33,771 nt of DNA from Thermotogae bacterium (GTDB lineage: Bacteria; Hydrothermota; Hydrothermia; LBFQ01). The position numbers were made by a program, and so were the translations under genes. Under the pieces are notes generated by a model that was not told where the DNA came from, did not search any database, and worked only from the letters and a program-made list of their open reading frames with translations. The number at the start of each line of letters is the position of its first letter. Within the stretch, counting starts at the first letter, position 1. Shown here piece after piece: positions 1-3,394 of this stretch. The stretch is taken from positions 1 to 33,771 of the forward strand of contig JAADDJ010000050.1 of the NCBI GenBank assembly GCA_013153965.1. Direction: 5' to 3'.

Positions 1-2695
1 GGAAGTCGTACTTGAGAAACTCGGCGTAGCGGGTGCGGTACTCCGGATGGTAAAGTATGGCATAGATGTAGTGAAGGACGTCTTCGGGGGAGACCTTATC
101 CCCGTACCGCTCTTTGAGGAATTTCTGGAACTCCTGTGTGAAGTTGGGGACCCGGATATAGTTGTGAGGATCTGGCTTTCTGGGATTAGGAAGGTAGAGG
201 TAAAGGGGGGAAAATTTGTTTCCCCCTCTACGGAATAAATTGAAATCTGTCGGTATCTTACTTACAAAAGCTACATCATATTGCTCTGAACCAACAACCT
301 CCCACTGTCTCCCAATCGCCAACCCTACATTCTCACCACGTAGCATATGGATCATAACCTCGATTCTTGGTCTCCATACAACAGCAGGATGGTAGAATAT
401 CCAACGCACATCAAAGGGCCGGTATAGGATGGGAATAATATACTCGTGGAGATCGTGGGTAGCTAAGTCTTCGCGAAGCTTTTGACGTGCCTCTTTCACT
501 CGCCACCGATAGTTTTCCTTTAGGTTTAGGACCTTTTGTACCTCTTTGTCTGTATACTCGTCGCTTACGAAGGTCTTTATCTTCTCAACGAGGGCATGCT
601 TATCAAAATCTATCACGAATCTATCTCGTGAAGTAGCTACGCCAGATGTCTTTTCTACGAAGATGTTAGTCACCTTCCATCCCCTCTCGTACTCCTCCCT
701 CAACTCCTTCGTTATGGTCGTGGGAACGAAGAAGTAAGAGGGAGACTCTGGGTTTAACTCCTTCCAATCTACGCTTGCGAGGGTGTTCTCAGAGAGGAAT
801 TTCAACTTCTCCTCTCGTGTCTTTAAACCCGCCTCAAGCGTGGAGAAGTAGAAGACCTTGGCAAGTTTATTATCATTCTTGCGTTTTTCTTTAATGAAGA
901 TGCCTATGGCTACGCCCTGTTGGATGTCAAAAACATTCTCGTCGTCTTCTCTCTTACGTTTGTTCCCGTGTAGGTTCAGGATGTATATCCTGTCAAAAGT
1001 CTTCAAAAGGCTTTGACGCATACCCCGAAAGGTGGGGTTGTCCAGATAAGCGTGGTTGGTTATATAGCCCACGATTCCCTTGCCGGTTTTGGCTATCTTC
1101 CACTGGGCGAACCGTATGAACTTGACGTAGTCGTCTTGTAGATTCACTTTGCGTTCTTTCAGAGGTTTCCCATCAATCTCGTAATAGCTTTGGATTTCCT
1201 CACCGCCCACATCAACGGTTTTCTTAAGAAGATTAACTATCCATTTGTTTTTGTTGGCCGAAATTTTATTGTACGGCGGATTGCCCACTATGGCTATTAT
1301 AGGCTCCTTGTCCTTAACTGCATCTGCCTTAGCTTTCTCGTCCGTTAAAACCTGCTCAAGAAGATTTTTACTTTGGTGATGGACGGAGCCGGGTCTTTCC
1401 AAAGTGTTGGTCAGGTACAGTCTAAACGCTTTATCCCCCCTATAGCCCAATTCCTTAAGCATAGCATCCAAGGTTAGGTGGCCTATAACGTAGGGGGCTA
1501 TCAGAATTTCAAAGCCGTAGAAATTCTCCAGAACGTGTTCGTCTATGAATCTACGAGTGTCCGCATTCCCCCATAAAGAGACGTGCTTTTCCAACGTCCT
1601 ATCCACGGCATCCGATATGAAGGCCCCCGTACCGAAGCACGGATCAAGGAGTTTAACGCTCTCGTTCGCCAATCCATTCTCGTAGCCTAAGTCCTCAAGG
1701 GCCGTATCCACGCCACGGTTGATAAAAGATATAACCTCACGTGGAGTGTAATAGACTCCTCGGATTTCCTTAAGCTCGGGGTCGTACCGCTTTAGGAAAG
1801 GCTCGTAGAAGTAGGTAGCCACATCCCGATAATTTATCCCTCCGGCGTACGCATTGACCACATTCACAATATCGTCCAAGGCCCAACGTATCTCATCCGG
1901 GACGCCCTCAACCATGCGGGAGCTGACGAATAGGGCAACAATAGAGCGTATTAACTTGAGCTTTTGAGGTATGAAGTTGCCAACGTTATCCAGCGTGATC
2001 CTCCTTTTGGCGTTGAGCTTGCCGATAAGCAGGCTGTAGGTGAGGGTTTGGGCCAGTATGTCGGCGAACTGCCCGGGGCTTAGGTCGGGTATAAGGTCGT
2101 TTTTTATAGTTTCGTATATATCCGTGATGGCGCGACTCTCAACGTTGCGGGCTATTGCCTCCTTGAGCACCCTCGCCCTCCGGGCCAGCTCATCGGCCAG
2201 TTTATCCATGGACTTTATCGCGGGCATGGAGAAGGAGAGGAAGAGGTTCAGAAGGCGATTCAATTCCTTCTCCGCAGAGGGCTTAGGGGTGAGTTTCCCA
2301 ATAGTCGGAAGGTTGTTTATGGCCAAAGATACCTTGTCCCTAAGCTTGCCATTCCTGTACAGACGGAACTCCACAAAGTCGGTAAGAATCAGGTTGGGAA
2401 CGAAGTTGAAGTACCTTTTAAGCTGCTCGGAAGTTTCTGCAGCATCCAAATTTGCCCCCGGTCTCTTAGCCTCTATGTATCCGACTATCGCTCCACCGCT
2501 TGAGCGTATTACCTTGAAGTCCGGAAAACCGAACTCCTCCTTGCTCGGAGCTTGGATAACCTCCACCTTCCCGCCCGATAACTCCTCAATTAAACTCTTG
2601 AGATGAGGGTAGAAGCTCTCCTCACGAGCCGAACCACTCCTATAGGTCTCCTCTAAAGCCTTTAGGTACGCTTTCACGGGGCTTTTACTACGCAT
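1..2695 (-). CDS. Nuclease-adenine methyltransferase fusion (type ISP/IIG-like R-M enzyme), 3' end cut by window
   Basis: The reading frame is open from ATG at 2695 to the window edge (898 codons, no stop). Residues 1-130 look like a PD-(D/E)xK nuclease, with P58-D59 followed by E75-A-K77. A helical linker follows, then an N6-adenine methyltransferase with SAM motif I DPCFGTG at 351-357 and catalytic GNPPYN at 471-476. The C-terminal half (YRPFD at 758-762 and onward) resembles the type ISP target-recognition region. No helicase domain lies between nuclease and methylase, unlike LlaGI/LlaBIII, so a single-chain IIG-like cutter-modifier is likely. The gene is visibly AT-richer than its neighbours, which suggests horizontal acquisition. 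It diverges from the gene at 2744. Family assignment is firm; cutting activity and target site are not known. Confidence 0.85.
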   Translation of the reverse strand, partial: MRSKSPVKAYLKALEETYRSGSAREESFYPHLKSLIEELSGGKVEVIQAPSKEEFGFPDFKVIRSSGGAIVGYIEAKRPGANLDAAETSEQLKRYFNFVPNLILTDFVEFRLYRNGKLRDKVSLAINNLPTIGKLTPKPSAEKELNRLLNLFLSFSMPAIKSMDKLADELARRARVLKEAIARNVESRAITDIYETIKNDLIPDLSPGQFADILAQTLTYSLLIGKLNAKRRITLDNVGNFIPQKLKLIRSIVALFVSSRMVEGVPDEIRWALDDIVNVVNAYAGGINYRDVATYFYEPFLKRYDPELKEIRGVYYTPREVISFINRGVDTALEDLGYENGLANESVKLLDPCFGTGAFISDAVDRTLEKHVSLWGNADTRRFIDEHVLENFYGFEILIAPYVIGHLTLDAMLKELGYRGDKAFRLYLTNTLERPGSVHHQSKNLLEQVLTDEKAKADAVKDKEPIIAIVGNPPYNKISANKNKWIVNLLKKTVDVGGEEIQSYYEIDGKPLKERKVNLQDDYVKFIRFAQWKIAKTGKGIVGYITNHAYLDNPTFRGMRQSLLKTFDRIYILNLHGNKRKREDDENVFDIQQGVAIGIFIKEKRKNDNKLAKVFYFSTLEAGLKTREEKLKFLSENTLASVDWKELNPESPSYFFVPTTITKELREEYERGWKVTNIFVEKTSGVATSRDRFVIDFDKHALVEKIKTFVSDEYTDKEVQKVLNLKENYRWRVKEARQKLREDLATHDLHEYIIPILYRPFDVRWIFYHPAVVWRPRIEVMIHMLRGENVGLAIGRQWEVVGSEQYDVAFVSKIPTDFNLFRRGGNKFSPLYLYLPNPRKPDPHNYIRVPNFTQEFQKFLKERYGDKVSPEDVLHYIYAILYHPEYRTRYAEFLKYDF

Positions 2696-2743: not shown

Positions 2744-3394
2744 TTGAATTTGGACGAGTACATACCCGTTGATAACGTCCCCACCGGGGCCTATCCCTAC
2801 GCCCCCATATACCGCCGCATAGGAACCCTCTCAATAGGACGTCAGGTATTCCACAGTCCCAAACGCATATACTCGCAGGTGAATCTCCGCTTCTACGCGC
2901 TGAAGGCCGAGGGCCGAGAGATTCGGAGAGTCCTATTCCACTCCAAGGGAGACCCCGCGCTGGATGCCAACCTCGGCAGAACCGCCTCCATCCTCAAGTC
3001 GGCGGGATTCAACTTGACCGTCCTAACCTCCGGGGGAATGCTCTGGCGGGAGGACGTGCGGGAAGATTTGGGCGCATTTGATACGGTCATACTTACACTT
3101 GATGCCGCGACCGAGGAAACTTGGCGCAGGGTACTCCGTCCCCATCCACTCCTGAAATTTCACCGTGTGATTGACGGACTCTTGAAATTCTCCTCCGCAT
3201 TCACGGGACGACTCGTGGCCCTCATCCACGTGGTGGAGACCGTGAATTACGACGATGAACTCCCCCCCTTGCGGGAGCTTCTGCGGAGTATGAGGATAGA
3301 CCAGGTGCTCCTGAAGGACACGACCCGCGAGGGTAGGGCGAAGGAACTCCTTGAAGCGTTGGAGGCCTCGGAGCTCAAGGTCAGGGTGATGTGA
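2744..3394 (+). CDS. Cysteine-free radical-SAM-like protein (COG0731-type fold)
   Basis: The 216-residue protein tracks the COG0731 radical SAM family without its iron-sulfur cluster. The segment PIYRRIGTLSIG (21-32) matches the family's N-terminal PxxSRRLGxSLG stretch. GDPALD (69-74) sits at the GEPTLN motif, TSGG (95-98) at TNG, TLDAATEETWRRVLRPH (118-134) at the SLDA/RPH region, and NYDDE (168-172) at NDSDE. The CxxxCxxC ligands that should follow residue 32 are absent, and the whole protein contains no cysteine. TTG 2744 is the first usable start after an in-frame TGA at 2732. The last 14 bp overlap the convergent lipoprotein gene. It is either a non-catalytic derivative of the fold or a remodelled relic; its function is unknown. 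Confidence 0.65.
   Translation: MNLDEYIPVDNVPTGAYPYAPIYRRIGTLSIGRQVFHSPKRIYSQVNLRFYALKAEGREIRRVLFHSKGDPALDANLGRTASILKSAGFNLTVLTSGGMLWREDVREDLGAFDTVILTLDAATEETWRRVLRPHPLLKFHRVIDGLLKFSSAFTGRLVALIHVVETVNYDDELPPLRELLRSMRIDQVLLKDTTREGRAKELLEALEASELKVRVM

What the first reader, a model, noticed from the sequence alone, without database searches (positions are those of the whole stretch)
2744..3394. Radical SAM fold that has lost every cysteine
Motif order (PxxRRxGxLSIG, GDPALD, TSGG, TLDA, RPH, NYDDE) follows COG0731 radical SAM enzymes from start to end, yet the CxxxCxxC cluster site is replaced and no cysteine exists in 216 residues. Radical SAM pseudoenzymes are rarely described. Its promoter is packed back-to-back with that of an apparently acquired nuclease-methyltransferase gene, so a link to that system (regulator, specificity partner or inhibitor) is conceivable.
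Basis: partly seen in the sequence, partly recalled or inferred. Interest (0 to 1): 0.6.

Follow-up and report, generated by a model that had tools for sequence, protein, structure and literature searches.

The report
Radical SAM barrel without its cysteines
A small bacterial gene, kept under selection in five of the six searched species of one genus, encodes a protein built on the fold of radical SAM enzymes but with the iron-sulfur cluster site replaced by a new conserved loop, so the old fold has probably been reused for a job that no longer needs radical chemistry.

Summary
ORF 2744-3394 (+) encodes 216 residues with no cysteine, and sequence, profile and predicted structure all place it in the radical SAM fold. 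It is not a decayed allele. Five of six searched species of the genus carry an ortholog (206-235 aa). None has CxxxCxxC, all form one clade (100/100), and selection is purifying (dN/dS about 0.13-0.15). All 87 other family members examined from the phylum and two outside genomes keep CxxxCxxC; so do the top hits of a wider search. The three cluster cysteines are now Tyr/Ser, Pro and Arg/Lys. The Asn, Lys and ETM residues of the canonical active site are also gone, as are the N-terminal PSRRLG motif and about 100 C-terminal residues. A new loop, DN(V/I)PTGxxPxAPxx(R/K)RxGxxSxGRQxFxSPxRxY, is conserved instead. The proposed link to the neighbouring type IIG restriction-methyltransferase is not supported: orthologs sit beside gcvT, hisS/Fur or ligA. 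Best explanation: a lineage-specific pseudoenzyme whose former cluster/SAM site became an Arg/Pro-rich binding loop. Its ligand is unknown.

The parts
2744..3394 (+). Cys-less radical SAM-fold protein, 216 aa (TTG start; TTG 2750 is an alternative)
2771..2872 (+). Residues 10-43: replaced cluster-loop segment DNVPTGAYPYAPIYRRIGTLSIGRQVFHSPKRIY; 19 of 34 columns invariant in the genus
2792..2815 (+). Residues 17-24, the positions aligned with CxxxCxxC of canonical relatives (Cys1->Y, Cys2->P, Cys3->R)
2948..2965 (+). GDPALD (residues 69-74), counterpart of the GEP(T)LD SAM-binding motif; GEPTLD in the other four orthologs
3044..3070 (+). WREDVREDL (residues 101-109), nearly invariant in the Cys-less clade
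3137..3154 (+). RPHPLL (residues 132-137), invariant in the Cys-less clade; Arg and the last Leu shared with canonical members

Best explanation
It is a genus-specific radical SAM pseudoenzyme. An ancestor of the CxxxCxxC type, of the TYW1/COG0731-like kind, lost the [4Fe-4S] ligands, SAM-site residues, N-terminal PSRRLG element and C-terminal domain, and kept the partial (beta/alpha)6 barrel. The place of the cluster was taken by a new conserved Pro/Arg-rich loop. Shown by computation: fold, loss of ligands, single origin, purifying selection. Inferred: it cannot bind a radical SAM cluster by cysteine ligation and so does no radical SAM chemistry. It now works as a binding or regulatory protein, with the invariant arginines of the loop (R25, R33, R41) and the barrel mouth holding an anionic ligand such as a nucleotide, a phosphate or RNA. 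The ligand is a guess.
For: No Cys in the window protein; 0-2 Cys in the orthologs, none at a position shared by all. 87 of 87 canonical members keep CxxxCxxC and 0 of 5 genus members do. Profile scores 357-405 bits inside the genus against at most 150 outside, in the phylum and in 442 genomes of two other phyla. Monophyly 100/100 on a long stem (1.65) inside a canonical clade supported 99/96. dN/dS 0.13-0.15 for the one unsaturated pair, within the 0.04-0.22 range of seven other genes of the same two genomes. Besides Cys, positions invariant in canonical relatives are lost: Asn of ITN, Lys of SLK, ETM, PSRRLG. Loop columns 10-43 are enriched in invariant residues, 19 of 34 against 68 of 197 overall, p=0.004. 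Radical SAM fold by structure search with and without relatives in the alignment. The host keeps six other Radical_SAM genes over the Pfam cut-off, so the loss is specific to this protein.
Against: No biochemical data. GEPTLD is kept in four of five orthologs and could still touch SAM or a nucleotide. The loop itself is modelled with low confidence (pLDDT under 50), from only three sequences. No conserved neighbour gives a pathway. One genus member (G002, 92% complete) lacks the gene, so it is not essential to the whole genus.
Confidence: 0.62

Rival explanations
1. Neofunctionalised enzyme: the barrel now catalyses a non-radical reaction, with invariant polar residues (D10, T14, R25, R33, E103, D104, R132, H134) as the new active site.
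For: 68 of 197 comparable columns are invariant across orthologs that are only about 50% identical to the window protein, including many polar residues, and eight positions switched from one invariant residue to another.
Against: No known catalytic motif and no Pfam or NCBIfam match other than weak radical SAM hits.
Confidence: 0.2
2. Dedicated subunit: a dead partner that binds and regulates or completes one of the host's active radical SAM enzymes, as pseudoenzymes do in other families.
For: Six other radical SAM genes remain in the genome; this mode is common among pseudoenzymes (review PMC10211241).
Against: No active radical SAM gene adjoins any of the five loci, and no canonical copy of its own family was found in the genus.
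Confidence: 0.1
3. Partner, regulator or inhibitor of the divergent type IIG restriction-methyltransferase.
For: Start codons 48 bp apart and divergent in the window; the neighbour is a type IIG enzyme.
Against: Orthologs in G001, G003, G004 and G005 have other neighbours; no promoter-like match in the gap.
Confidence: 0.03
4. Decaying pseudogene with no function.
For: Truncated at both ends and stripped of catalytic residues.
Against: Open frames in five species at roughly 50-60% identity, low dN/dS, conserved new loop.
Confidence: 0.03

Closest known systems
TYW1-like / COG0731-type bacterial radical SAM proteins (canonical relatives, e.g. L127, L128, L032, L033)
   Same: Collinear over about 190 residues, roughly 24-39% identity, shared R-x-x-F, G-x-P-x-x-D, W and R-P positions; the Cys-less clade is nested among them.
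   Different: Canonical ones are about 310-340 aa with CxxxCxxC, PSRRLG, ITN, SLK, ETM and a C-terminal domain; all of these are missing here. Some canonical ones sit with MinD-ferredoxin ATPases and Nitro_FeMo-Co proteins; the ATPase was not found in the five genomes that carry the Cys-less gene.
Archaeal TYW1 (4-demethylwyosine synthase; PDB 2z2u, 2yx0, 6djt)
   Same: Fold match, TM about 0.56-0.61; one ortholog hits TIGR03972 at 5.4e-10.
   Different: TYW1 has a radical SAM cluster and a second cluster (PMC5352715); neither is possible by cysteine ligation here.
Prokaryotic viperins
   Same: Weak profile hits, PADLOC pVip 2.7e-7, and fold match to viperin.
   Different: Far under the NCBIfam cut-off (17.8 against 180 bits) and no CxxxCxxC; not a viperin.

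Membership tests
Radical SAM superfamily (as functional enzymes) | CxxxCxxC (or variant) ligating a [4Fe-4S] cluster | tested here: not met
   No Cys in the window protein; motif absent in all 5 orthologs, present in 87/87 relatives
Radical SAM superfamily (as functional enzymes) | Partial (beta/alpha)6 barrel fold | tested here: met
   AlphaFold models and Foldseek hits
Radical SAM superfamily (as functional enzymes) | SAM-binding GGEP-like motif and the rest of the SAM site | tested here: inconclusive
   GDPALD in the window, GEPTLD in the other four; Asn of ITN, Lys of SLK and ETM lost
Radical SAM superfamily (as functional enzymes) | Reductive cleavage of SAM | not testable with these tools
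   needs biochemistry
TYW1/COG0731-like family (by descent) | Phylogenetic placement among family members | tested here: met
   Nested in a canonical clade, 99/96 support; long stem, so the exact sister is unsure
TYW1/COG0731-like family (by descent) | N-terminal FGPVPSRRLGxSLG motif and C-terminal domain | tested here: not met
   Both absent
Prokaryotic viperin | Score over NCBIfam NF038283 cut-off and CxxxCxxC | tested here: not met
   17.8 bits against cut-off 180; no Cys
Type IIG restriction-modification component | Conserved linkage with the restriction-methyltransferase | tested here: not met
   Different neighbours in four other species

The most novel reading that the evidence does not exclude
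A radical SAM barrel has been converted, once, into a cluster-free protein with a new conserved active or binding site (the DNxPTG...GRQxFxSPxR loop), giving either a new non-radical enzyme or a new regulator: a natural example of a radical SAM enzyme losing its cofactor and gaining another role.
Probability: 0.3. Interest if true: 0.65.

Novelty: new variant of a known kind. Interest (0 to 1): 0.45.

Why it matters
Radical SAM enzymes are a very large superfamily defined by their cluster, and pseudoenzymes derived from them are hardly described: a 2023 review of pseudoenzymes contains no match to 'radical' or 'iron-sulfur' in its text (PMC10211241), and the library searches gave no clear example. 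A clade with one origin, purifying selection and a replaced cluster loop makes it testable what such a barrel can do without its cofactor. It also warns that fold- or profile-based annotation would wrongly call these proteins radical SAM enzymes.

Tried and rejected
Alternative alignment of PIYRRIGTLSIG with the N-terminal PSRRLGxSLGI motif: rejected, mean block score 1.3 against 28.2 and 0 of 50 pairwise alignments. Viperin membership: rejected, far under cut-off. Restriction-modification link: rejected on neighbourhoods. Decayed allele: rejected by orthologs and dN/dS. Viral-contig scans with both the Cys-less and the canonical alignment found no relative. The one scan of genome contigs found only two canonical relatives. 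Rfam on the window: nothing. A possible shared-neighbour relic (a ~148-aa protein beside canonical genes in G018/G026 and beside hisS in the window genus, near the Cys-less gene only in G003) is too weak to use.

Full report
OBSERVATION. The ORF at 2744-3394 (+) is open, starts with TTG (2744, or in-frame TTG 2750), and encodes 216 residues without a cysteine. Pfam Radical_SAM matches residues 55-171 at E=4.4e-6, slightly under its cut-off; several NCBIfam radical SAM models match weakly. The match begins after the cluster region, as expected if only that part has been replaced.

FOLD. AlphaFold2 with an alignment of three sequences (window plus two canonical relatives) gave pLDDT 77.8 and pTM 0.80. 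All 50 listed PDB hits are radical SAM-superfamily proteins (DesII, TYW1, BlsE, PFL-AE, Cfr, NifB, viperin, LIAS and others), best E=4.9e-7. Folding the protein alone gave a poorer model (pLDDT 59.9, N-terminal third unresolved), but radical SAM structures still rank first (1.5e-6). The fold therefore does not depend on the relatives put into the alignment. The segment 17-29, where the cluster would sit, is the part with pLDDT under 50 in the three-sequence model.

ORTHOLOGS. The window is a whole contig of a 1.53-Mb draft genome. In the same genus, four of five other species have a 54-60% identical protein (G001, G003, G004, G005; G002 lacks it); the sampled members of the other genus of the family and of the rest of the order have none. 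None of the five has CxxxCxxC; their Cys counts are 0, 0, 1, 1 and 2, with no Cys at a position shared by all. Elsewhere in the phylum the relatives are mostly 310-385 aa, a few about 245 aa. I read 87 family members, 85 from the phylum and two from other phyla (L032, L033), and every one has CxxxCxxC. Profile scores leave a wide gap: 357-405 bits in the genus, at most 150 outside it. The gap persists in 442 genomes of two other phyla, where the top hits all have the motif.

WHAT WAS LOST AND GAINED. In the alignment with ten canonical relatives (A2) the cluster cysteines correspond to Tyr/Ser, Pro and Arg/Lys. Also lost are the invariant N-terminal FGPVPSRRLGxSLG, the Asn of ITN, the Lys of SLK, the ETM motif and roughly 100 C-terminal residues. 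Kept are R-x-x-F, G-(D/E)-P-x-x-D, a Trp, the Arg of RPH and several hydrophobic positions. A new motif, DN(V/I)PTGxxPxAPxx(R/K)RxGxxSxGRQxFxSPxRxY, is conserved in the genus; 19 of its 34 columns are invariant against 68 of 197 overall (p=0.004; five sequences only, and the segment was chosen after looking).

EVOLUTION. A maximum-likelihood tree of 92 sequences puts the five Cys-less proteins in one clade (100/100) on a stem of 1.65 changes per site, inside a clade of canonical proteins (28 rows, 99/96). A single loss is the simplest reading; the exact sister group is unsure because of the long stem. For the one pair with clearly unsaturated synonymous sites (G001-G004, dS about 0.56) dN/dS is 0.13-0.15; seven other genes of these two genomes give 0.04-0.22. 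The gene is under purifying selection of ordinary strength. Its dS is higher than that of the adjacent gcvT (0.09), which hints at recombination around it.

CONTEXT. The gene starts 48 bp from a divergent type IIG restriction-methyltransferase that runs off the contig end. In other species it adjoins gcvT (divergent; G001, G004), hisS and a Fur-like gene (G003) or ligA (G005). There is no conserved partner and no repeated restriction gene. A promoter consensus scan of 2600-2850 found nothing. Canonical relatives in several genomes stand beside MinD-type ATPases with ferredoxin domains and a Nitro_FeMo-Co protein, an arrangement like the ORP/MrpORP genes. The MinD-type ATPase was not found in the five genomes that carry the Cys-less gene. 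The host has six other Radical_SAM genes over the Pfam cut-off, so it has not given up radical SAM chemistry.

INTERPRETATION. Shown: fold, loss of ligands, single origin, selection. Inferred: no cluster, hence no radical SAM chemistry. Proposed: the vacated cluster/SAM site and the new Arg/Pro-rich loop bind an anionic ligand or RNA, and the protein acts by binding rather than catalysis (0.62 for the pseudoenzyme reading as a whole). A new non-radical enzyme (0.2) and a regulatory subunit of another radical SAM enzyme (0.1) remain open. The dN/dS estimate rests mainly on one pair, the loop model is weak and no ligand is known.

NOVELTY. By descent it belongs to a known family; by function it fails that family's defining feature. 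Library searches found no described radical SAM pseudoenzyme clade, though the library is open-access only and an annotated but undiscussed Cys-less group elsewhere cannot be excluded.

Noticed in passing
L127 782-3829, L128 936-4273, L134 5193-8646, L136 5011-9900, L140 483-5245: Canonical CxxxCxxC relatives sit beside MinD-type ATPases with ferredoxin domains and, in four of these five loci, Nitro_FeMo-Co (MrpORP-like) proteins, suggesting that the canonical family works with an iron-sulfur or metal-cofactor assembly system.
   Followed up: partly
window 2-2695 (-): Type IIG restriction-methyltransferase (PADLOC PDLC03610 9.5e-205; Type_ISP_C), cut by the contig end.
   Followed up: partly
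L034 9984-10664 and L035 9920-10615 with neighbours: Between G001 and G004 the Cys-less gene has dS about 0.56 while the adjacent gcvT has 0.09, hinting at recombination or gene exchange around this gene.
   Followed up: partly
L034 3-2090: A SufB-like gene appears to carry an intein-like insertion (GCLTEDSYIF... to ...FIANGIFAHN).
   Followed up: no
L160 3071-3514, L036 3894-4340, L128 4867-5310: An unnamed ~148-aa protein, found in all 11 genomes tested, lies beside hisS in most of the window's genus and beside the canonical radical SAM gene in G018/G026; no Pfam match for the two copies scanned.
   Followed up: partly
L122-L126 (family f18): A separate long-branched group (stem 1.98) of shortened relatives, about 245 aa, that keep the cysteines but with Asn or Asp before the last one (CTFDCINC, CTYDCIDC).
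   Followed up: no
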